The notes beneath the pieces were generated by a model. It saw only the letters and a list, made by a program, of their open reading frames with translations, was not told the DNA's origin and did not search any database. Below, piece after piece: positions 12,539 to 38,611 of a DNA stretch of 64,000 nt (position 1 is its first letter; each line of letters opens with the position of its first letter). The DNA is from Paenibacillus albus (GTDB taxonomy: Bacteria > Bacillota > Bacilli > Paenibacillales > Paenibacillaceae): assembly GCF_003952225.1 (NCBI RefSeq), contig NZ_CP034437.1:805001-869000 (forward strand), in the 5' to 3' direction. The position numbers and the translations under genes were made by a program.

Positions 12539-12734
12539 TGAAAAGTGAAGTGAAAGTAAGGATTTGGGACCATTCCGTTGAAAAAACTAACTTTATCCCC
12601 AGAAATCAAGTTGATTTAACGGGATTATCCTAAAAATTCGCTAAAATCGTCATTAATCAGTTCTTTACAATTTGCAGCGGTAGACGGTATGATTCATTTC
12701 AGAGCAACAAAACTTGTATTCCTTTTCCAATAAA

Positions 12735-12950
12735 CGCTTAATCTCCGAACATTCGGAGAGCGGGGGAACCAATTGTTGAAACTGTTTGTAGCAATTGTTT
12801 GTAGCAAACAGAAGTAAACATGGAGATTCTTCTTGGGGTGAATTTTGCTTGGTGATGTGGTTGAAGATATCACTTCACGTAACGAGCGAATAGGGCGACT
12901 CTCACGCCCGAATCCGACAGCTAACCTCGCCAGCGTAAATAAGAGAGATC
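12735..12950 (+). ncRNA. Cyclic di-AMP riboswitch (ydaO-yuaA type) ahead of yabE
   Basis: Conserved ydaO blocks appear in order: CGCTTAAT (12735), a small hairpin CTCCGA/TCGGAG, GAGCGGGGGAACCAA (12758-12772), TTGGGGTGAATT (12833-12844), TAGGGCGACTCTC (12891-12903), CGAATCCGACAGCTAACC (12909-12926) and CGCCAGCGT with AAGAGAGA. The segment between the second and third blocks is longer than usual and contains a direct repeat TTGTTTGTAGCAA. A terminator hairpin follows, as expected for an OFF switch on c-di-AMP binding. Associated gene: a cell-wall hydrolase-like protein, a common target of this riboswitch class. Confidence 0.88.
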
Positions 12951-28897: not shown

Positions 28898-29947
28898 GTG
28901 ACACAGCAGTTATTCTTTGTAGGTTCCTACTCCCCGCGGGAGCAGGAGGGCGTATCGGCAATGACTCTGGATACAGAAACAGGTGCAATTAGCCGATTGT
29001 CCGGCGTAGCAGGCGTTCATAATCCATCCTTCTTGCGCGTGAATGATGCAGGCACTCATCTCTACGTAGTAAGTGAAACCGGCGTGGAGCCGGGCAGCGT
29101 GCTGAGTTATGCCCTAACTGGCGATAACGGCGGGCTAACGGAAATTAACGAAGCGTCCACACTCGGCGGTTCGCCATGCCATGTCGAATTTGACAAAAGC
29201 GGTCAGCTGCTTGTCGTGACTAACTATACAGGTGGTACATTCAGCTTGTATGCACTCGGTGAGGATGGCTCCGCTGCACTTGCTGATCACATCAAGCATG
29301 AGGGCCGCGGACCGCGCGATGACCGCCAGGAAGCGCCGCATCCACACTCGGCAATCGTTGATCCAGCGGGGCTCTACGTGCTCATTGCGGATCTTGGTAC
29401 AGATGAAGTCGTCTCGTACCGAATTGATTCGGATGCGAAGAAGCTGATCAAGCAAGGAGCAACCGCAGCAGCTCCGGGAGCGGGTCCAAGACATATGGCG
29501 TTCCATCCGCAGCAGCCGATACTGTACGTAATCAATGAATTGGACAGCACGGTTGCTGTCTATAGCTATGAACCAGAGCAGTCGCAGTTGACACTGAAGC
29601 AGGTCATCTCGACGCTGCCGGAATCATTCACAGACGAGACGACTTGCGCGGATATTCATGTGACGGCTGACGGACGCTTCTTGTATGCATCGAATCGCGG
29701 CCATGACAGCATTGCGGTATACCGTGTAGCAGAGGATGGTTCGCTTACGCTTGTGCAGTTCGCGCCGAGCGGCGGGAAGACGCCGAGAAACTTTGCGATA
29801 TCGCCGGACGGACAATATTTGCTGTCCGCGAATCAGGAGTCGAGCGTCATCGTTACCTATCGGATCGACCAAGCGACAGGTGAATTGCAGCCGACAGGTC
29901 ATAGCATCGAGACAAACAAGCCGGTTTGTATTGCATTCGTGAAGTAA
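28898..29947 (+). CDS. Lactonase family beta-propeller protein (6-phosphogluconolactonase-like)
   Basis: 349 residues of repeating blades typical of the seven-bladed Pgl/YkgB lactonase family: FFVGSYSP at the start, then HLYVVSE, PCHVEFDKSGQLLVVTNY, GPRHMAFHPQQPILYVINELDSTV, FLYASNRGHDSIAVY and the C-terminal PRNFAISPDGQYLL. The probable reaction is hydrolysis of 6-phosphogluconolactone, but family members also act on other lactones. GTG 28898 is used because TAGGAGG is 7 nt upstream; starts further upstream fall in the preceding terminator. It stands alone between two terminators and opens the accessory island. Confidence 0.85.
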   Translation: MTQQLFFVGSYSPREQEGVSAMTLDTETGAISRLSGVAGVHNPSFLRVNDAGTHLYVVSETGVEPGSVLSYALTGDNGGLTEINEASTLGGSPCHVEFDKSGQLLVVTNYTGGTFSLYALGEDGSAALADHIKHEGRGPRDDRQEAPHPHSAIVDPAGLYVLIADLGTDEVVSYRIDSDAKKLIKQGATAAAPGAGPRHMAFHPQQPILYVINELDSTVAVYSYEPEQSQLTLKQVISTLPESFTDETTCADIHVTADGRFLYASNRGHDSIAVYRVAEDGSLTLVQFAPSGGKTPRNFAISPDGQYLLSANQESSVIVTYRIDQATGELQPTGHSIETNKPVCIAFVK

Positions 29948-29973
29948 GCCGCGCGGGCGGAAGAACATATAGG

Positions 29974-30009
29974 ACCGGATAAGCGACAATTTGCTTGTCC
30001 GGTTTTTTT
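29974..30009 (+). terminator. Intrinsic terminator after the lactonase gene
   Basis: ACCGGAtAAGC / GCTTgTCCGGT stem with an 8-nt loop and a run of seven T. Confidence 0.88.
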
Positions 30010-30083
30010 GTGCTTTTTAAAATAAGGTCGAGTTATATATGTGTCATATGTAGCGAACATTCTGTCTTTATCTCAGTCTAAAA

Positions 30084-30100
30084 TGTCAGTTAAAGTGACT
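30084..30100 (+). promoter_or_regulatory. Possible distal GlnR/TnrA box upstream of urtA
   Basis: TGTCA-N7-TGACT, one mismatch from TGTNA-N7-TNACA; centre about 112 bp upstream of the predicted urtA transcription start. Confidence 0.4.
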
Positions 30101-30156
30101 CGTTTATGAGGTTTATTCTTAAAAATTTTGAGAAAAAGAAAAAATAGATTATTTTG

Positions 30157-30173
30157 TGTAAAGTTTATTGACA
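30157..30173 (+). promoter_or_regulatory. GlnR/TnrA box overlapping the urtA -35
   Basis: TGTAA-N7-TGACA matches TGTNA-N7-TNACA at every fixed position. Its 3' arm is the -35 hexamer of the urtA promoter, a position suited to repression when nitrogen is plentiful. Confidence 0.65.
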
Positions 30174-30197
30174 TGAACATCAAGCTGATTTTATAAT
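30168..30197 (+). promoter_or_regulatory. Sigma-A promoter of the urt operon
   Basis: TTGACA (30168-30173), 18-nt spacer, TATAAT (30192-30197). The predicted start leaves a leader of about 70 nt before urtA. The rest of the 328-nt gap holds only the preceding terminator and the GlnR-type boxes. Confidence 0.75.
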
Positions 30198-30275
30198 GAG
30201 ACCACGAACGTTGGAAGACAAATCCAGCAAATCGTTCGGAATAGAGAAAAGAAAATAGGGATTGGGAGTGGGAGA

Positions 30276-31529
30276 ATGAGGAATAGGAAAGCGAAGGGCA
30301 GTGCGGCGGTACTCATTGCATTATGCTTGGCGCTCGCGGGATGCGGTACAAACAACGATAAAGCTGCATCCACGAATGAGCCAGCCCAGACAGACTCAAC
30401 CAGCGGTGGGGAAATTAAAGTCGGTATTCTTCATTCTCTCAGCGGCACGATGGCAATCAGCGAGGTATCGGTTAAGGATTCAGAGATGATGGCAATCGAC
30501 GAAATTAACGCGAAGGGCGGCGTGCTCGGGAAGAAGATCGTACCTGTCGTCGAAGATGGTGCGTCGGATTGGCCGACCTTTGCGGAGAAGGCGCGTAAGC
30601 TGATTTCCGAAGATAAAGTCGCGACGGTGTTCGGCGGATGGACGTCCTCGAGCCGTAAAGCGATGCTGCCGGTATTCGAAGAGCTGAAAGGGCTACTCTG
30701 GTATCCGGTACAGTATGAGGGTCTGGAGCAATCACCGAACATCATGTATACAGGCGCTACAACCAACCAACAGATCGTACCTGCTGTCACCTGGCTGCTC
30801 CAAAACCACGGCAAGAAATTTTTCCTCCTCGGCTCCGACTACGTATTCCCACGCACAGCTAACAAAATCATCAAAGAACAGCTCAAGGTTGAAGGTGGAG
30901 AGCTCGTAGGTGAAGAGTACACGCCACTCGGTCATACCGACTACGCCACAGTTATCGCCAAGATCAAAGAAGCGAAGCCGGATGTCGTGTTCAACACGCT
31001 GAACGGTGACAGCAACGTTGCGTTCTTCAAGCAGCTGAAGGATGCCGGCATTACCTCCAAAGACCTCACTACCTTGTCCGTATCCGTCGCGGAAGAAGAA
31101 ATTCGCGGTATCGGCACAGACGTACTCGCTGGTACATACGCCGCATGGAACTACTACCAAACCACAGACACCCCTGCCAACAAAACCTTCGTTGAGAACT
31201 ATAAGAAAAAATACGGCGAGGACCGCGTAACCGCTGACCCGATTGAAGCAGGCTATGACGCTGTATATCTATGGGCTGCAGCTGCCGAGAAGGCTGGTTC
31301 CACCGATGTCGAGAAAGTGAAAACAGCGGCGAAGGACCTGGAGTGGGATGCGCCGGAAGGCAAAGTGAAGATTGACGGCGAGACACAGCATTTGTACAAA
31401 ACCGTTCGTATCGGCGAAGTGCAGCCGGATGGCCAGTTCAAAGAAGTGTGGAATTCCGGTGAACCTGTGAAGCCAGATCCATTCCTGAAAGGCTACACGT
31501 GGGCGGCTAGCTTATCGGCAGGCAAGTAA
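30276..31529 (+). CDS. urtA: Urea ABC transporter, substrate-binding lipoprotein
   Basis: 417 residues: lipoprotein signal with lipobox LALAGC (Cys near 23), a Ser/Thr linker, then a type I periplasmic-binding fold of the UrtA class ([62 protein letters not shown]). These UrtA signatures separate it from branched-chain amino-acid binding proteins. It captures urea (and possibly short amides) outside the cell. First gene of urtABCDE; GGGAGTGGGAG precedes the ATG. Confidence 0.93.
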
Positions 31530-31651
31530 GGGAATTCGCTTAACTTTGCAGATGTAAATTGATAAATCGCGCTGCGCTGACGCTTCATGTATCCGGCGGC
31601 GCAGCCGGTTTATGCAAAATGGTTGCTTGGAACGGGATAAGGGGTGGGTGC

Positions 31652-32560
31652 ATGGACGTTGTTGTGCTGCAGCTGTTTAACGGAATTAGCGTCAGCTCGA
31701 TCCTGCTGCTGATTGCGCTTGGCTTATCGGTTACGTTCGGACTTATGAAGGTCATTAATATGGCGCATGGGGAGCTCATTATGATTGGAGCCTACACCGC
31801 CTATGTCGTGCAAAATCTATTCAACTCCTATATGCCCTCCTCGCTCTTCGGTTGGTACTTCGTTCTCGCTATCCCGGCGAGCTTCATCATCGCCTTCGTA
31901 TTTGGCCTTGTCCTCGAAATGAGCCTCATTCGCTTCTTATACGGGCGCCCGCTCGATAGCTTACTCGCCACTTGGGGCGTCGGCCTCATGCTCCAACAGA
32001 TCGCTCGCAGCATATTCGGTGCGCCGAATGTCGGCGTAACAAGCCCGGAGTGGTTGAACGGCGGCGTGACCGCGCTTGGAGGCGTCGTGTTTCCGTACAA
32101 AAGGCTGTTCATTCTCGGCCTTGTGCTCGTCTGTTTGATCTTCATGTACGTTTACATTTACCGGAGTCATTCCGGGCGGCGCATGAGGGCGGTCATGCAG
32201 AATCGGGAGATGGCGGCATGCCTCGGCATTTCGACGCGCCGCGTTGATGCGGTGACTTTCGCGATCGGCTCTGGTATTGCCGGCATTGCGGGCTGTGCGC
32301 TTACTCTCATTGGACCAATCGGGCCGTCTATCGGCACTTATTATATTGTGGATGCCTTTATGGTTGTTGTGCTTGGCGGCGTCGGCAAGCTGGTCGGCAC
32401 CGTGTTTGGTGCCTTCGGCATCGGCATGTCGAATACGTTGTTCGAATATTGGACGACGGCGTCGCTTGGGAAGGTGCTCGTATTTCTGTGCATCGTGGCG
32501 TTCCTGCAGTGGAAGCCAAGCGGCCTTGTGGCGATGCGCTCTCGCTCGCTGGATAACTAA
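31652..32560 (+). CDS. urtB: Urea ABC transporter, permease UrtB
   Basis: 302-residue LivH-type permease with about eight membrane helices. The N-terminal [20 protein letters not shown] and [20 protein letters not shown] are typical. ATG 31652 has AAGGGGTGGG upstream; the longer frame from 31559 adds residues outside the family and lacks a ribosome-binding site. It forms the membrane channel with UrtC. Confidence 0.92.
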
Positions 32561-32593
32561 GCACTAGGTTTTACTTCGAAAGGTGGTGAGGGC

Positions 32594-33685
32594 ATGCTGC
32601 TACGAACATTATCGTCCCGGCGGCTGTGGCTCCTGGCGATTTATGCGGCATTGGCAGTCGTTCTCTTCTGCGCGCCGCTTGTGCTCAGTGATTTTCGGCT
32701 GAACCTGCTGGCGAAATTTCTGGCATATGCCATCGTGGCACTAGGTCTAGATCTGATCTGGGGCTATACGGGCATTCTGAGCCTGGGCCATGGAGTATTC
32801 TTCGGCCTCGGCGGCTATGCCATGGCGATGTACTTAAAGCTCGAAGCAAGCGGAGGAAAGCTGCCGGATTTCATGGACTGGAGCGGGCTGACCGCGCTGC
32901 CGTGGTTCTGGAAGCCGTTCGGGTCGATCGGATTTGCTCTGGCTGCAGGCATTCTACTGCCTGCGCTACTGGCGCTCGTGCTCGGTTATGTAACGTTCCG
33001 CAACCGGATTCGCGGCGTCTACTTTACGATTTTGACGCAGGCGCTTGTGATCATTACAGTGACGCTATTCGTTGGACAGCAAGCATACACGGGCGGGACC
33101 AACGGCGTTACAGGCTACAGCAAGCTGTTCGGGTATTCGCTCGCATCGCCGGACACGAAGCGATGGTTGTATTTTGTAACGGTGGCGGTGCTGATTGGCG
33201 CGTTCCTGCTCTGTCGGTTCATTGTGAAGAGCCGCTTCGGCAAAGTGCTTCGCGCAATTCGAGACGGCGAGAACCGGGTACGCTTCATCGGCTACAATCC
33301 GGCGATCTATCAGATGGTCGCGTTCGCGATATCAGCGGGGCTAGCAGGTGTTGCAGGCATGCTGTTCGTGCTGCATGTTGGCATTATTTCGCCGTCGATG
33401 ATGGGTATTGTGCCTTCTATTGAGATGGTGCTCTGGGTGGCGATCGGAGGACGAGGCACGCTTGGCGGCGCAGTGCTTGGGGCCGTGCTGCTCAATTCGG
33501 CAAAAAGTACGTTCAGTGAGTCCTATCCGGAAATGTGGACGTTGTTCCTCGGCGCTTTGTTTGTGGTTGTCGTCGTGTTTCTGCCAAAGGGTGCTGCGGG
33601 ACTGTTTGGCAGTTTGAAGGGGTTTGTCAGAAGGGGGAAGGAATCGGATGAACGAGCGAATGGAGTCCGTAATCCTGCAGTGTGA
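32594..33685 (+). CDS. urtC: Urea ABC transporter, permease UrtC
   Basis: 363-residue LivM-type permease with multiple membrane helices; [20 protein letters not shown] near residue 50 and the EAA-like loop before [15 protein letters not shown] are characteristic. The GGTNGVTGY stretch is conserved in UrtC. GGTGGTGAGGG precedes the ATG. Its end overlaps urtD by 38 nt. Confidence 0.93.
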
Positions 33686-34433
33686 CGGTGTGACGGTTGA
33701 TTTCGACGGCTTCAAGGCCGTGCAAGGAATGGACCTGACGCTTACGCGCGGCGAGCTGCGGTTTCTCATTGGACCGAACGGAGCTGGCAAAACAACGATG
33801 CTGGACGTCATCTGCGGCAAAGTAAAACCGGCATCGGGCAAAGTGACGCTGCGCGGCGGCGTCGATATAACGCGGAAGCGGGAGCACCAGATCGCAGAGC
33901 TTGGCATCGGCCGGAAGTTCCAGACGCCGTCGATCTTCCCGTCGCTCACCGTCTACGACAATCTCGAGATCGCAATGAAGCAGAATCGCGGCGTCTTCGC
34001 GGCGATGCGCGCCAAGCTGCGCTCGGAGGAGGCCGACCGTCTTGCGGCGCAGCTGGAAATGGTCGGCTTGCAAGGGAAGGCGGCATGGCGGGCGGGCGGT
34101 CTGTCGCATGGCGAGAAGCAGTGGCTCGAGATCGGCATGATGCTGCTGCAGGAGCCGGAGATTCTGCTGCTCGATGAGCCCGTGGCTGGCATGACCGACC
34201 GGGAAACAGAGAAAACCGGCGAGCTGCTGCAGCATATCCGCAAGACGCAGTCGATTGTCGTCGTGGAGCATGACATGGAATTCGTGCGCAGCTTTGCGAG
34301 CAAGGTGACCGTGATGCACGAAGGCCGGCTGCTGAAGGAAGGGTCCATGGAGGATGTGCAGCGCGATGACCGCGTGGCGGAAGTGTATTTAGGGAAAAGG
34401 CGGGATGCCGATGCTAGCCGTTCAACAGCTTGA
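33648..34433 (+). CDS. urtD: Urea ABC transporter, ATPase UrtD
   Basis: 261-residue ABC ATPase: Walker [10 protein letters not shown] (about 43-51), the UrtD-specific [11 protein letters not shown] region, signature [12 protein letters not shown], Walker [13 protein letters not shown], switch His in VVEHDMEF. The LSHGEKQ signature rather than LSGGQ is usual for UrtD. ATG 33648 follows GGGGGAAGGAA; ATG 33660 is possible. Overlaps both neighbours, indicating tight coupling. Confidence 0.93.
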
Positions 34434-35112
34434 AGCGGGTTACGGGGAGAGCGTCATCTTAAGGCAGGTGACGCTCCAGGTGAAGCCGGGGCAGGTCGTC
34501 TGCCTGCTCGGGCGCAACGGGGTCGGCAAAACAACGCTCATGAAGAGCATCATGGGCGTGCTCAAAGCGCGCCGGGGAACAGTGACATACAAAGGCGATG
34601 ATCTGACGAAGCAGCCGCCGGGGCAGCGGGCGAAGAAGGGGATCGGTTATGTGCCGCAGGGGCGCGAGATCTTCCCGCAGCTCACGGTGTTCGAGAATGT
34701 GCTGCTTGGATTAGAGGCCGTGGGAGGCAAGAAGCGGCGTCAAGTTATACCGGAGTCTGCAATCGCCAAGTTTCCGGTGCTTCCTGCCATGTACGACCGC
34801 AAGGGCGGCGACTTAAGCGGCGGACAGCAGCAGCAGCTCGCCTTCGCCAGAGCGCTTGCTTCGGAGCCGGAGTTGCTGCTCCTAGATGAGCCGTGCGAAG
34901 GCATTCAGCCTTCCATCGTGGACGATATCCGCGATGTCATCCGCTCGATCAAGGCGGGAGGAGAGACGGCAATTCTGCTAGCGGAGCAAAGTCTGGAGTT
35001 CGTGAAGAGTGTTGGCGATTACTTCTACATTCTCGAGAAGGGCTCCATTGCCTGGGAAGGCGGCCTATCGGATTTGAACGATGAAGTGATCCGTCATTAC
35101 TTAACGGTATAG
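34405..35112 (+). CDS. urtE: Urea ABC transporter, ATPase UrtE
   Basis: 235-residue ABC ATPase: YGESVILRQVTL, Walker A GRNGVGKTT, GIGYVPQGREIFPQLTV, signature LSGGQQQQLAFARAL, Walker B ELLLLDEPCEGIQPSIV. The GIQPSIV tail of Walker B is a UrtE trait. ATG 34405 or ATG 34411 are possible starts. It overlaps urtD by 29 nt and ends the operon. No urease genes are in the window, so urea breakdown must be encoded elsewhere. Confidence 0.93.
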   Translation: MPMLAVQQLEAGYGESVILRQVTLQVKPGQVVCLLGRNGVGKTTLMKSIMGVLKARRGTVTYKGDDLTKQPPGQRAKKGIGYVPQGREIFPQLTVFENVLLGLEAVGGKKRRQVIPESAIAKFPVLPAMYDRKGGDLSGGQQQQLAFARALASEPELLLLDEPCEGIQPSIVDDIRDVIRSIKAGGETAILLAEQSLEFVKSVGDYFYILEKGSIAWEGGLSDLNDEVIRHYLTV

Positions 35113-35119
35113 ACAATTA

Positions 35120-35136
35120 TGTAATAAAACCTAACA
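35120..35136 (+). promoter_or_regulatory. GlnR/TnrA box I (upstream of the -35)
   Basis: TGTAA-N7-TAACA, an exact match to TGTNA-N7-TNACA, centred about 51 bp before the predicted transcription start, a position suited to activation. It begins 8 nt after the urtE stop. Confidence 0.7.
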
Positions 35137-35142
35137 CAAGTG

Positions 35143-35172
35143 TTGACACTTCCATGGATCACCTTTTAATAT
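35143..35172 (+). promoter_or_regulatory. Sigma-A promoter of the NitT/TauT transporter operon
   Basis: TTGACA (35143-35148), 18-nt spacer, TAATAT (35167-35172). Confidence 0.7.
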
Positions 35173-35181
35173 AAAGACAGA

Positions 35182-35198
35182 TGTTAGATAATCTAACA
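35182..35198 (+). promoter_or_regulatory. GlnR/TnrA box II (downstream of the -10)
   Basis: TGTTAGATAATCTAACA, a perfect 17-bp palindrome and a full match to the TnrA/GlnR consensus TGTNANAWWWTNTNACA. It would cover about +4 to +20 and is placed for repression. Confidence 0.8.
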
Positions 35199-35234
35199 AA
35201 TTGAATATTGGTTCCCCGCATTCCGATAGGGAAC

Positions 35235-35349
35235 AACAAGCTGTCTAGGGTTCCGTGGCACAGTAATACAATGTGTCAGCTGGTCCGAGAGATGGCGTAT
35301 GGAGCGATTCGCTTCATATACACGGAAGGACAAAAGCCTGGGAGATCTC
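35235..35349 (+). ncRNA. ykkC-family riboswitch, probably guanidine-I
   Basis: The conserved ykkC blocks are present in order: CTAGGGTTCCG (35245-35255), CTGGTCCGAGAGA (35280-35292), CACGGAAGGACAAAAGCC (35321-35338) and CTGGGAGA (35338-35345). Between them are two hairpins: TGGCACA/TGTGTCA and GTATG/CATAC with an inner AGCG/CGCT. A preceding hairpin GTTCCC/GGGAAC (35211-35234) might be an extra P0-like helix. The aptamer 3' end is shared with a terminator, giving an ON switch when ligand is bound. The ykkC family also has ppGpp and PRPP subtypes; the NitT/TauT transporter downstream favours guanidine. Confidence 0.82.
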
Positions 35350-35364
35350 TCCTTAGGCTTTTTC
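35334..35364 (+). terminator. Riboswitch expression-platform terminator
   Basis: AAGCCT / AGGCTT outer stem and GGAGA / TCTCC inner stem, followed by TTTTTC. The 5' arm is part of the conserved ykkC aptamer, so ligand binding and termination are mutually exclusive. Confidence 0.85.
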
Positions 35365-35439
35365 TATTCTTGTACAAAGGTTCAAGGTTAGGCGCGGCCG
35401 GTTGTACATGAGCTAGAGAAACGATGGGAGTGGGGACGA

Positions 35440-36453
35440 ATGAAGAGAAGAATGAAACGAACGGTTACGGTAGCTGTACTCGCTGCAATGCTCATTACGC
35501 TTGCGGGATGCGGGGGATCGAAGGATGCATCCACAGGTGCGGACAATTCGCCGATTACAATTGCACTAAGTCCTTGGCCGGGCTGGTTCTTCTGGTTCCT
35601 CGTCGATGAGAAAGGCTTCTTCGACAAGCATGGCGTGAAGGTCGATCTCAAGTGGTTCCCGGTCTACAGCGATTCCTTACAAGCACTCTCAACTGGCAAG
35701 GTGGACGCGAATAGCCAGACGTTGAGCGATACGCTTGCTCCAGCATCCAAAGGCATCGGCCTCAAGGCTGTACTGGTTAACGACAACTCCTTCGGCGGCG
35801 ATGCGATTGTAAGCAAGCCTGATATTGCTTCGATTAAGGATTTGAAGGGCAAGACGGTAGCGACCGAGCTTGGCACGGTCGATCATCTCCTCCTTCTGAC
35901 TGCACTCGCGCAGAACGGACTGTCTGAGAAGGATGTCAATTACGTGAATATGACGGTTAACGATGCGGGGCCTGCTTTTATATCCGGCAAAACAGACGCC
36001 TCCGTGCTCTGGGAGCCATTCCAGACGAAAGCGGTGAAGGAAGGCAAAGGCAAGGTGCTCTTCTCCTCGAAGGAAACACCAGGGCTAATTCCCGATCTGC
36101 TCGTCTTCCGCGACGAGGTTGTGAAGAACCGCCCGGATGATATTCAGAAGATTGTCGACGCATGGTTCGATGCGCTGGACTACTTCAAGACTCATCAAGA
36201 CGAAGCAATCAAGCTCATGGCGGAGAAAGCGGAGACGACACCAGAGGACTTCAAGCTGGGACTTGAGAGCATTAAGCTCTTCACGAAGGAAGACAACGTA
36301 ACAGCCTTCGGCAAGCGAGATGAGTACACATCGCTTCCGTATACAGCGGAGAAGACGGCAGACTTCTTGAAGAAGCTCGACATGGTAGATGAGATTAATG
36401 ATTTTGACGTCCTCTTCGATTCATCGTTTGTAGAAAAAGCAGCGAAGGAGTGA
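35440..36453 (+). CDS. NitT/TauT-family ABC transporter substrate-binding lipoprotein (candidate guanidine-binding protein)
   Basis: 337 residues: lipoprotein signal with lipobox ITLAGC, then a SsuA/TauA/NrtA-type type II binding fold (ITIALSPWPGWFFWFLVDEKG, SLQALSTGKVDANSQTLSDTL, GKTVATELGTVDHLLLLTAL, SGKTDASVLWEPFQTKAV). Generic annotation would be sulfonate/nitrate/taurine transport. The ykkC riboswitch and GlnR-type boxes in the leader point instead to a nitrogen compound, most likely guanidine or a related guanidinium. The aromatic run WPGWFFWF near the expected ligand cleft would suit a planar cation, but this is inference. Confidence 0.8.
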   Translation: MKRRMKRTVTVAVLAAMLITLAGCGGSKDASTGADNSPITIALSPWPGWFFWFLVDEKGFFDKHGVKVDLKWFPVYSDSLQALSTGKVDANSQTLSDTLAPASKGIGLKAVLVNDNSFGGDAIVSKPDIASIKDLKGKTVATELGTVDHLLLLTALAQNGLSEKDVNYVNMTVNDAGPAFISGKTDASVLWEPFQTKAVKEGKGKVLFSSKETPGLIPDLLVFRDEVVKNRPDDIQKIVDAWFDALDYFKTHQDEAIKLMAEKAETTPEDFKLGLESIKLFTKEDNVTAFGKRDEYTSLPYTAEKTADFLKKLDMVDEINDFDVLFDSSFVEKAAKE

Positions 36454-36458
36454 GCCCT

Positions 36459-37283
36459 ATGAGCGCGACCACAGTAGTAGTGCAGGCGAAAACGAGAAAG
36501 AGAAAGCCAAACCGGCTTCAAATCTTCAAAGATATCGGCAACAAGTCATTTGCATTCACGGCAGGCTTCTCCTTCATTCTGCTGTTCGCGCTCTGGTCGC
36601 TGCTCAGCTATACGGAATCGGTCAATCCCATCTTCCTGCCGACCCCGGATAAAGTGTTCGTCGAGATGTTTCATCTGCTTGGTACGAGCGAGTATTGGCA
36701 TCACATTGGCATCAGCGTGTTTCGTGTATCGGCGGGCTTCCTGCTCGCCTGCGTCATCGGCATTCCAATTGGGATCTTTGCTGGTACGTTCAAGTACGGT
36801 GAGGCGTTCATTGAACCACCGATGGAATTTATCCGATATATGCCGGCTGTTGCGTTCATTCCGCTCATTATGGTGTGGGCAGGTATCGGGGAATGGGCGA
36901 AAATCCTGCTTATCTTCCTCGGTTGCTTCTTCCAGCTTGTGCTGATGGTGGCTGACAATACGCGCCGCGTCTCTCAGGATCTGCTGCAAGCATCGTTCAC
37001 GCTTGGCGCTGGGCGATGGAAGGCGATCGAGACGGTGCTCATTCCGGCGATTCAGCCGCAGCTGATGAATACGCTTCGGCTTATCCTCGGCTGGGCATGG
37101 ACGTATCTCGTCGTTGCAGAGCTCGTCGCGGTAAACAGCGGCCTAGGCTACGCTATTATGAAGGCACAGCGTTTCCTTAACACTGATCAGATCTTCGTCG
37201 GCATCATCGTCATCGGATTGCTCGGACTCATCAGCGACCGGATCTTTGCATTTTTAAACCGCCGACTGTTCCCTTGGGCATAG
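36459..37283 (+). CDS. NitT/TauT-family ABC transporter permease
   Basis: 274 residues with about six membrane helices; the SsuC/TauC-type signature is in the cytoplasmic loop SFTLGAGRWKAIETVLIPAIQPQ (the EAA loop), and the C-terminal GLGYAIMKAQRFLNTDQ is typical. ATG 36459 lies 8 nt after AAGGAG. Five nt separate it from the binding-protein gene. Confidence 0.88.
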   Translation: MSATTVVVQAKTRKRKPNRLQIFKDIGNKSFAFTAGFSFILLFALWSLLSYTESVNPIFLPTPDKVFVEMFHLLGTSEYWHHIGISVFRVSAGFLLACVIGIPIGIFAGTFKYGEAFIEPPMEFIRYMPAVAFIPLIMVWAGIGEWAKILLIFLGCFFQLVLMVADNTRRVSQDLLQASFTLGAGRWKAIETVLIPAIQPQLMNTLRLILGWAWTYLVVAELVAVNSGLGYAIMKAQRFLNTDQIFVGIIVIGLLGLISDRIFAFLNRRLFPWA

Positions 37284-37341
37284 GGAGCCCGAGCATCAGG
37301 ATCGACATAATGCAAACGAGTGGATAAGGAGTGGATGCCAT

Positions 37342-38190
37342 ATGGAAGCAGCAAAAAGATCAGCGGAAACTGTTACGGTGCAGGAAAAGGCGGGAAGAAG
37401 CGTGCATGCAGTCGAGATAGACAAAGCAGCGGCTCAGCGGGGCGAGATCACGATCAGCGGTCTTAGCAAAGTGTACGAAACGAAGAAGAGCCGGTTCGAG
37501 GCGCTGCGGGGCATCGACATGCAGGTGCGGACGAATGAGTTCGTGACGATCGTCGGTCCGTCCGGCTGCGGCAAATCCACGCTGCTTCGCATCGTGGCGG
37601 GGCTCGACGAGCTGAGCGAAGGCTCGGTGACATTGGACGGCGAGGAAGTGATTGGGCCAGGCGCGGAGCGGGGCATGGTGTTTCAGGGCTATACGCTGTT
37701 CCCGTGGCTAACAGTGCGCGAGAACATTGAGTACGGTCCTAAGCTGAAAGGTGTATCTACGCTGGAGCGGCGTGCGATAAGCAGTCATTTTCTGAAAGTG
37801 ATCAAGCTTGAAGCGTTTGCGAATGCCTATCCGAAGCAGCTATCCGGAGGGATGAAGCAGCGGGTTGCGATCGCAAGAGCGCTTGCGAACCGCCCAAAGG
37901 TGCTGCTCATGGATGAACCATTCGGCGCGCTCGATGCGCAGACGAAGCTTGAGATGCAGGAGATGCTGCTTGAGGTGTGGGAGAAGGAGAAGACGACGGT
38001 TCTCTTCATTACGCACGACATCGACGAGGCTGTATTCCTGTCGCAGCGGATCATCGTCATGGGCGCAGGCCCAGGACGCATATTGAAGACGTTCGATGTA
38101 CCGCTGCCTGCGCAGCGGACGCCTGAAGTGCGGGAGCTGCCGGAGTTTCTGGCGCTCAAGCGGGAGCTCGGACTGCTGCTGAAGCATTAA
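37342..38190 (+). CDS. NitT/TauT-family ABC transporter ATPase
   Basis: 282 residues: Walker A GPSGCGKST, Q-loop MVFQGYTLFPWLTV, signature LSGGMKQRVAIARAL, Walker B VLLMDEPFGALD, switch His FITHDIDEAV. The SsuB/TauB-type EPFGALDAQTK is clear. About 35 N-terminal residues precede the core domain. It completes a three-gene importer with the two genes before it. Confidence 0.92.
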   Translation: MEAAKRSAETVTVQEKAGRSVHAVEIDKAAAQRGEITISGLSKVYETKKSRFEALRGIDMQVRTNEFVTIVGPSGCGKSTLLRIVAGLDELSEGSVTLDGEEVIGPGAERGMVFQGYTLFPWLTVRENIEYGPKLKGVSTLERRAISSHFLKVIKLEAFANAYPKQLSGGMKQRVAIARALANRPKVLLMDEPFGALDAQTKLEMQEMLLEVWEKEKTTVLFITHDIDEAVFLSQRIIVMGAGPGRILKTFDVPLPAQRTPEVRELPEFLALKRELGLLLKH

Positions 38191-38210
38191 ACACGAAAGG
38201 GTGACGGGTC

Positions 38211-38339
38211 ATGTCAGAGAAGGACGCAACTAATCGAGAAACTGCAAATGTGCGCAGAAGCTTTAACAATCGGCTGCTGGCGCTGCTCGGATCCATTGTG
38301 AAAATCATGTTTTTCCGTCATCCTGCCGCTCTTCGATAG
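38211..38339 (+). pseudogene. Short 42-codon ORF, probable stump of a truncated fourth gene of the operon
   Basis: An ATG 20 nt after the ATPase gene with GGGTGACGGG upstream opens a 42-codon frame (MSEKDATNRETANVRRSFNN, then a hydrophobic start RLLALLGSIVKIMFF) that stops at the edge of the repeat cluster. The good initiation context with no recognisable product suggests the 5' end of a gene whose body was lost. The original function cannot be told; neighbours of ykkC-linked transporters are often guanidine- or urea-degrading enzymes or transport subunits. Confidence 0.5.
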
Positions 38340-38345
38340 CTCCGC

Positions 38346-38533
38346 TTCTAACGAACTGAGGCGGCGTTATTCAAGCTAATTTGGAAGGAATTGATATTCT
38401 AACGAACTCAGGTAACGTTATCCTTCGGATTTGAGCCATTGTAGTGGAAAAATCGAGGAAATAGCGTGCCTCCAGTTCGTTAGCCGCTTGAATCAGCTGA
38501 AAATGAATGAATAAGCGCTATACGGTTCGTTAG
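38346..38533. repeat. Cluster of four CTAACGAAC repeats, two direct and two inverted
   Basis: CTAACGAACT-type units begin at 38348 and 38399 (plus orientation) and end at 38483 and 38533 (inverted, AGTTCGTTAG and GGTTCGTTAG). Each is followed, in its own orientation, by 10-12 variable bases and CG(T/C)TAT. Units are 50-80 bp apart and the halves face each other, so the whole can fold into a long imperfect hairpin. No ORF is contained. Confidence 0.75.
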
Positions 38534-38583
38534 CCCGAAGCCGAAGCACCACTTATACCCCCGTACGTCCTGGATTCTAAGCT

Positions 38584-38611
38584 GCCGCTCTTCTTTTAGA
38601 GCGGCGTTTTT
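38584..38611 (+). terminator. Intrinsic terminator ending the transporter operon
   Basis: GCCGCTCT / AGAGCGGC stem, 6-nt loop, GTTTTTG. Confidence 0.85.

What the first reader, a model, noticed from the sequence alone, without database searches (positions are those of the whole stretch)
28898..38611. Accessory nitrogen-scavenging island between mfd and spoVT: urea importer plus riboswitch-controlled NitT/TauT importer
The window otherwise follows the conserved order, yet about 9.7 kb separates the mfd-linked foldase from spoVT. It holds urtABCDE and a three-gene NitT/TauT importer, each with GlnR/TnrA-type boxes, the second also with a ykkC-family riboswitch. Together this reads as one nitrogen-starvation programme taking up urea and guanidine; guanidine breakdown can yield urea and ammonia. 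Adjacent placement of both importers under the same operator type is the observation; the guanidine substrate is inference.
Basis: partly seen in the sequence, partly recalled or inferred. Interest (0 to 1): 0.8.

Follow-up and report, generated by a model that had tools for sequence, protein, structure and literature searches.

The report
Nitrogen- and guanidine-gated importer beside urea importer
A Paenibacillus-like bacterium carries, side by side, an importer for urea and one that very probably takes up guanidine, and its DNA suggests the second is made only when nitrogen is scarce and guanidine is present; in related bacteria the nitrogen signal marks guanidine-eating genes and is missing from guanidine-expelling ones.

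Summary
Window 30276-35112 is urtABCDE; 35234-35346 is a guanidine-I aptamer (83.5 bits, cut-off 63); 35440-38190 is a NitT/TauT importer. The only three perfect GlnR/TnrA boxes in 64 kb lie upstream of these operons. It is not an accessory island: in the host's family urt lies near spoVT in 27 of 29 sampled genomes with urtA.

The guanidine reading is strengthened: the genome's one other guanidine-I match precedes carboxyguanidine deaminase, guanidine carboxylase and allophanate hydrolase genes, also behind a perfect box, and 18 of 36 named relatives hold importer and carboxylase genes within about 10 kb. "Guanidine gives urea" is not supported: no arginase-family gene lies near either switch.

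Beyond the finding: in sampled Bacilli a perfect box precedes 74 of 80 guanidine-I units for uptake or assimilation but 0 of 109 exporter units. Paired boxes lie near multiples of 10.5 bp (86 places, R 0.67; 0 of 2000 random sets match), as two dimers on one DNA face would need. I read the importer as an AND gate: GlnR at the promoter, guanidine at a terminator. Parts are known; the combination and the split were not seen in the papers I could search.

The parts
28898..29947 (+). lactonase (7-bladed beta-propeller); neighbour, not part of the nitrogen programme
   Evidence: PF10282 408 bits
30084..30100 (+). possible upstream GlnR box of urt, one mismatch, 73 bp before the perfect one
   Evidence: one-mismatch boxes alone are at chance level
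30157..30173 (+). perfect GlnR/TnrA box TGTAAAGTTTATTGACA containing the urt -35 hexamer
   Evidence: sequence
30168..30197 (+). urt promoter TTGACA-18-TATAAT (12 of 12)
30276..31529 (+). urtA, urea-binding protein
   Evidence: TIGR03407 603.6 bits, cut-off 492.75
31652..32560 (+). urtB permease
   Evidence: TIGR03409
32594..33685 (+). urtC permease
   Evidence: TIGR03408
33648..34433 (+). urtD ATPase
   Evidence: TIGR03411
34405..35112 (+). urtE ATPase
   Evidence: TIGR03410
35120..35136 (+). perfect GlnR box I, 6 bp upstream of the importer -35
   Evidence: relatives
35143..35172 (+). importer promoter TTGACA-18-TAATAT (10 of 12), between the two boxes
35182..35198 (+). perfect GlnR box II, 9 bp downstream of the -10 hexamer, 62 bp from box I
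35234..35346 (+). guanidine-I riboswitch aptamer
   Evidence: RF00442 83.5 bits
35332..35364 (+). intrinsic terminator whose 5' arm is the aptamer's 3' end: predicted guanidine-ON switch
   Evidence: fold z -4.4 for 35316-35372; sequence
35440..36453 (+). substrate-binding protein with a lipobox-like cysteine, predicted to bind guanidine
36450..37283 (+). importer permease
   Evidence: PF00528
37342..38190 (+). importer ATPase
   Evidence: PF00005; best NCBIfam models below cut-off

Best explanation
Two nitrogen-scavenging importers under GlnR. When glutamine is plentiful, GlnR (with feedback-inhibited glutamine synthetase) sits on the urt -35 box and on the twin boxes around the importer promoter, and both are off. 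When nitrogen is short both promoters are freed (the importer perhaps also activated from box I). The importer transcript then stops at a terminator unless guanidine binds the aptamer and holds the strand that would form the terminator. The importer is thus made only with nitrogen shortage AND guanidine. Guanidine is carried in and degraded by carboxylase, carboxyguanidine deaminase and allophanate hydrolase made from a second locus behind the same two gates; urea taken up by Urt goes to urease, whose genes also have a box. Shown by sequence: genes, boxes, aptamer, terminator, second locus, conservation. Inferred: GlnR binding and its sign, ligand, ON direction, substrate, AND logic.
For: Aptamer and terminator overlap. 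Boxes. MerR-family gene directly upstream of glnA with a perfect box before it. 86 boxes in the genome against 52 for the reversed pattern. Own carboxylase operon: second switch 81.5 bits with a perfect box about 100 bp upstream; urea_carbox 1753.8 bits, UAAP1 and UAAP2 over cut-off, allophanate hydrolase 555.9 bits. Switch before the binding-protein gene in 36 of 36 usable named relatives (25 by regular expression only, 10 by cmscan over the cut-off, 1 at 58.8 bits) and in 24 of 25 genomes of the relatives set that have the protein, own genome included (G068's at 58.9 bits). Importer with carboxylase genes in 18 of 36. Perfect box before 74 of 80 uptake or assimilation units, 0 of 109 exporter units. 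Box 69 bp before ureA.
Against: No expression, binding or uptake data. The nearest solved relatives of the binding protein by sequence bind sulfonate, nitrate or taurine. B. subtilis TnrA was found by ChIP-on-chip at the exporter promoter ykkC, with no effect on expression in the conditions used (PMC4475385, passages). Within one mismatch 17 of 109 exporter units have a box. The presumed GlnR passes no curated model (TnrA model 79.4 bits, cut-off 140). Whether GlnR activates or only represses here is unknown. In G030 no switch was found upstream of the importer. Six uptake or assimilation units lack a perfect box (L159, internal to its cluster; L320, L170, L276, L243, L248). Structure prediction could not be run.
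Confidence: 0.8

Rival explanations
1. The importer carries a sulfonate or taurine, as its SsuA-family label suggests, and the switch is incidental.
For: SsuA_fam cut-off passed; nearest solved structures by sequence are sulfonate, nitrate and taurine binders.
Against: The guanidine-I switch is kept upstream in 36 of 36 usable named relatives, carboxylase genes lie in the same cluster in 18 of 36, and no sulfonate or taurine equivalog cut-off is passed. GlnR boxes point to nitrogen, not sulfur.
Confidence: 0.06
2. The true substrate is a related guanidino compound such as methylguanidine, with guanidine one of several.
For: [quoted passage not shown]
Against: Nothing here separates the two ligands; I did not look for methylguanidine genes.
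Confidence: 0.2
3. Guanidine is hydrolysed to urea and ammonia by a guanidinase, so the two importers feed one urea pool.
For: The genome has urease and five arginase-family proteins.
Against: They score as agmatinase, arginase x3 and formimidoylglutamase; the nearest is about 23 kb from a switch. The switch-controlled enzymes are those of the carboxylase route. No guanidinase-specific model was tested, so this is not excluded.
Confidence: 0.06
4. A horizontally gained accessory island.
For: G009 has mfd-prsA-spoVT with nothing between.
Against: urtA lies within 25 kb of spoVT in 27 of 29 family genomes with urtA (read off); the slot also occurs with urt only (G006, G024) or importer only (G001), which reads as old residence with separate losses. 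No gene tree was built.
Confidence: 0.08

Closest known systems
Guanidine-I riboswitch with ABC importer and guanidine carboxylase pathway (enterobacteria; review PMC12186494, passages)
   Same: Guanidine-I aptamer before an ABC importer; carboxylase, deaminase and allophanate hydrolase as the degradation route.
   Different: Here importer and enzymes are at two loci, each with its own guanidine-I switch and GlnR-type box; the importer lies beside urt.
Dual GlnR control of the nif promoter in Paenibacillus polymyxa (PMC6191146, passages)
   Same: One GlnR site upstream of -35/-10 and one downstream; the sites are about 13 helical turns apart if the stated 118 bp is edge to edge (my arithmetic).
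   Different: Spacing here is 62 bp, and a riboswitch adds a second, transcript-level gate. Activation from box I is untested here.
UrtABCDE urea ABC transporter
   Same: Full five-gene set above family cut-offs.
   Different: Conserved position between mfd and spoVT in this family, away from urease; in other families of the order urtA is often beside urease.

Membership tests
Guanidine-I riboswitch (RF00442) | sequence-structure match above curated cut-off | tested here: met
   83.5 bits, cut-off 63
Guanidine-I riboswitch (RF00442) | expression platform that guanidine could switch | tested here: met
   terminator shares the aptamer 3' strand
Guanidine-I riboswitch (RF00442) | binds guanidine | not testable with these tools
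   needs in-line probing or ITC; RF00442 matches at 57-68 bits stand before xpt-pbuX-like genes (names recalled from translations), so weak matches may sense other ligands
UrtABCDE urea transporter | five subunits above curated cut-offs | tested here: met
NitT/TauT importer | NMT1/SsuA-type binding protein, BPD permease and ATPase genes in a row | tested here: met
Urea-carboxylase-linked binding protein TIGR03427 | score above 333.9 bits | tested here: not met
   139.9 bits; not filed there
GlnR regulon | perfect TGTNAN7TNACA at promoter | tested here: met
GlnR regulon | glnR in the genome | tested here: inconclusive
   MerR_1 gene directly upstream of glnA; best curated model TnrA, 79.4 bits below cut-off 140; name given by position, recalled
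GlnR regulon | GlnR binds and controls the promoter | not testable with these tools
   needs EMSA and a mutant
Guanidine carboxylase pathway (second locus) | carboxylase, two deaminase subunits, allophanate hydrolase under a guanidine switch | tested here: met
   that UAAP1/2 are the deaminase and 'urea_carbox' the guanidine carboxylase is recalled

The most novel reading that the evidence does not exclude
In Bacilli that eat guanidine, a promoter code divides guanidine-I riboswitches into food and poison: assimilation units are gated by GlnR and guanidine together, exporters by guanidine alone; and paired GlnR sites act as cooperative or looped pairs on one face of the DNA across the promoter.
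Probability: 0.55. Interest if true: 0.68.

Novelty: new variant of a known kind. Interest (0 to 1): 0.55.

Why it matters
Why bacteria carry guanidine switches is an open question: waste, toxin or food. A DNA signal that separates feeding from expelling units, 74 of 80 against 0 of 109, would let one read the purpose of an uncharacterised switch from its promoter and predict strains that grow on guanidine. The helical spacing of paired GlnR sites gives direct material for the disagreement between a looping model and a two-independent-sites model of GlnR control in Paenibacillus.

Tried and rejected
Accessory island: disfavoured by synteny. Guanidinase route: disfavoured for lack of a candidate near a switch. 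Sulfonate importer: disfavoured. One-mismatch boxes: at chance in the window, not used as evidence alone.

Earlier versions of the unit count, superseded: with aptamer starts found by regular expression (58 of 65 against 0 of 34); for the class set, of which misplaced some starts; with covariance-model coordinates (74 of 79 against 0 of 92), in which the starts of L007 and L248 were off because their loci are cut by contig ends. One search mends those two and adds 20 units. Three APC units (L230, L235, L248) were put in their class by hand from their translations. The units are related, so p-values overstate independence. The reversed pattern hits 9 of 34 NitT units, 0 of 46 other uptake or assimilation units and 1 of 109 exporters. 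A first spacing test used spacings I picked by hand; it is not used, and one search replaces it.

Structure prediction of the binding protein: machine busy at six tries, so no pocket model. Invariant W46, W49, W52, D78, D97, D115, D121, E143 and E192 in 25 aligned proteins would suit a cation; that is inference only.

Papers: no report on helical phasing of Bacilli GlnR sites was seen in the listing (15 of 58 listed). Guanidine with riboswitch and GlnR: three papers; I read passages of one, PMC12452182, and for the other two saw the listing only. Searches showed no such report in their listings (one search listed 15 of 1,365, 12 of 66). In PMC9948412 (passages) P. polymyxa's 24 predicted GlnR targets, 10 with two sites, are described without the word guanidine in the main text. 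PMC5360189 (Nelson 2017) and DOI 10.1111/mmi.14702 were not held.

Full report
WHAT IS THERE. The window is from a Paenibacillus-like genome (6.63 Mb, one contig; the nearest named binding protein, 98% identical, is from Paenibacillus sp. OV219). Between the prsA-like foldase and spoVT lie a lactonase (28898-29947), urtABCDE (30276-35112) and a three-gene NitT/TauT importer (35440-38190). A guanidine-I aptamer sits at 35234-35346. Its last bases form the 5' arm of a strong terminator at 35332-35364, the usual layout of a ligand-ON transcription switch; the direction is inferred.

OPERATORS. TGTNAN7TNACA has three perfect matches in the 64 kb, all here; 0.46 are expected. The urt box contains the -35 hexamer of a 12-of-12 promoter, a repressor position. 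The importer has box I 6 bp upstream of its -35 and box II 9 bp downstream of its -10 hexamer, 62 bp apart start to start. In P. polymyxa nif an upstream site activates in nitrogen shortage and a downstream one represses in excess (PMC6191146, passages). The genome has 86 boxes against 52 for the reversed pattern, and a MerR-family gene directly upstream of glnA with a perfect box before it, taken to be glnR; it passes no curated model (TnrA model 79.4 bits, cut-off 140).

THE REST OF THE PATHWAY. The genome gave two RF00442 matches (stricter filters, so weak ones may be missed). The second (81.5 bits) precedes UAAP1 and UAAP2 (carboxyguanidine deaminase, name recalled), urea_carbox (1753.8 bits, cut-off 1303.85; here guanidine carboxylase) and allophanate hydrolase (555.9 bits, cut-off 511.05), with a perfect box about 100 bp upstream of the aptamer, just before a TTGACA-18-TATAAT promoter. 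Urease is present with a perfect box 69 bp before ureA (ureA named by sequence, recalled). The five arginase-family proteins score as agmatinase, arginase x3 and formimidoylglutamase, the nearest about 23 kb from a switch. So guanidine most likely goes to allophanate and ammonia, not urea.

CONSERVATION. The named scan gave 42 loci. I used 36; dropped are L066 (41% identity), L069 (partial match, no switch found) and L070-L073 (32% or less). A guanidine-I switch stands before the binding-protein gene in all 36 (25 by regular expression only; 10 by cmscan over the cut-off; L052 at 58.8 bits, under it). Importer and carboxylase genes lie within about 10 kb in 18 of 36. The order urt - box - switch - importer - spoVT is seen in 13 of 36, with up to about 6 kb of other DNA before spoVT, and in L056 and L059 the carboxylase genes lie inside that interval. 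In 98 genomes of the relatives set, which overlaps the named one, 25 have the binding protein at E 1e-40 or better, own genome included; 24 of them have a switch just upstream (G068's under the cut-off; none found in G030). 18 of the 25 have urtA within 25 kb (read off the tables), 17 at spoVT and G059 elsewhere, next to urease. urtA is within 25 kb of spoVT in 27 of 46 genomes, 27 of 29 in the host's family (read off). The slot also occurs bare (G009), with urt alone (G006, G024) or importer alone (G001).

A CODE FOR FOOD AND POISON. I took 219 RF00442 units: 109 from the relatives search (all 114 matches except 5 under 45 bits) and 110 of the 130 matches of a class-wide sample: 10 were already held and 10 were not fetched. 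Downstream genes were classed by tblastn and the 300 bp before the aptamer searched for a perfect box. Uptake or assimilation: APC permease 14 of 14, second APC type 5 of 7, carboxylase pathway 23 of 25, NitT importer 32 of 34; together 74 of 80 (63 of 65 in the relatives set, 11 of 15 in the class set). Small multidrug resistance exporters: 0 of 109 (0 of 34, 0 of 75). Letter-shuffled upstream DNA gives 0.4 of 80 and 0.6 of 109. Within one mismatch the figures are 79 of 80 and 17 of 109. Unclassified units: 3 of 30, among them xpt-pbuX-like and purine-like units (recalled from translations) that probably sense other ligands. Fisher p is 6e-46 but units are related. Five genomes hold both kinds (G059, G086, G097, G235, G323): in each the exporter unit lacks a box and uptake or assimilation units have one, save an internal carboxylase switch in G086. 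Against a strict rule: TnrA was found by ChIP at the B. subtilis exporter ykkC, without effect on expression (PMC4475385, passages).

HELICAL SPACING. Over 98 genomes two box-pair patterns gave 104 places. Spacings pile up at 42, 52-53, 62, 72-75, 83-84 and 92-96 bp. Without the 18 guanidine-importer promoters, 86 places give a best period of 10.5 bp, R 0.67, and 0 of 2000 uniform random sets reach it; one per genus and spacing, 73 places, R 0.65, again 0 of 2000. Each half of the range alone also gives 0 of 2000, with best periods of 9.85 and 10.1, so the exact period is not fixed by these data. The pattern requires TGTAA in the first box, so it samples a subset. Two dimers on the same face fit cooperative or looped binding; the nif work in P. 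polymyxa argued against looping, that in P. riograndensis (sonchi) for it (PMC6191146, PMC10789242, passages).

VERDICT. Observation confirmed; interpretation partly right. The importer is most likely a guanidine importer under an AND gate. Each part is a known kind; the joint gate, the split between feeding and expelling units and the phasing were not seen in the papers I could search (listings; open-licence library only, long lists cut).

Noticed in passing
window 38346-38483: Two 25-nt direct copies of TTCTAACGAACT.AGG and an inverted partner between the importer and spoVT; the 14-nt core has no other match in the window at 0-1 mismatch.
   Followed up: partly
window 38211-38339: A 42-codon ORF after the importer ATPase gene; possibly a gene remnant. 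Not compared with relatives.
   Followed up: no
L168 (genome G021) 514-1227: A hydrolase nearest to biuret amidohydrolase (86.5 bits, well below the cut-off 370) behind a guanidine-I switch and a perfect GlnR box: a candidate further guanidine-assimilation gene.
   Followed up: partly
L181 557-880 (G012) and L274 (G206): A small membrane-like protein (107 aa in L181; no NCBIfam match) directly behind a guanidine-I switch, not classed as SMR by tblastn.
   Followed up: partly
L269, L299 (G252, G327): A YitT-like membrane protein (recalled from the translation) behind a guanidine-I switch; L299 has a perfect GlnR box, L269 none.
   Followed up: no
L056, L059: Three guanidine-I switches (by regular expression) in about 10 kb of one cluster, before the importer, carboxylase and ATPase genes.
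   Followed up: no
window 12725-12950: c-di-AMP riboswitch, 88.1 bits.
   Followed up: no
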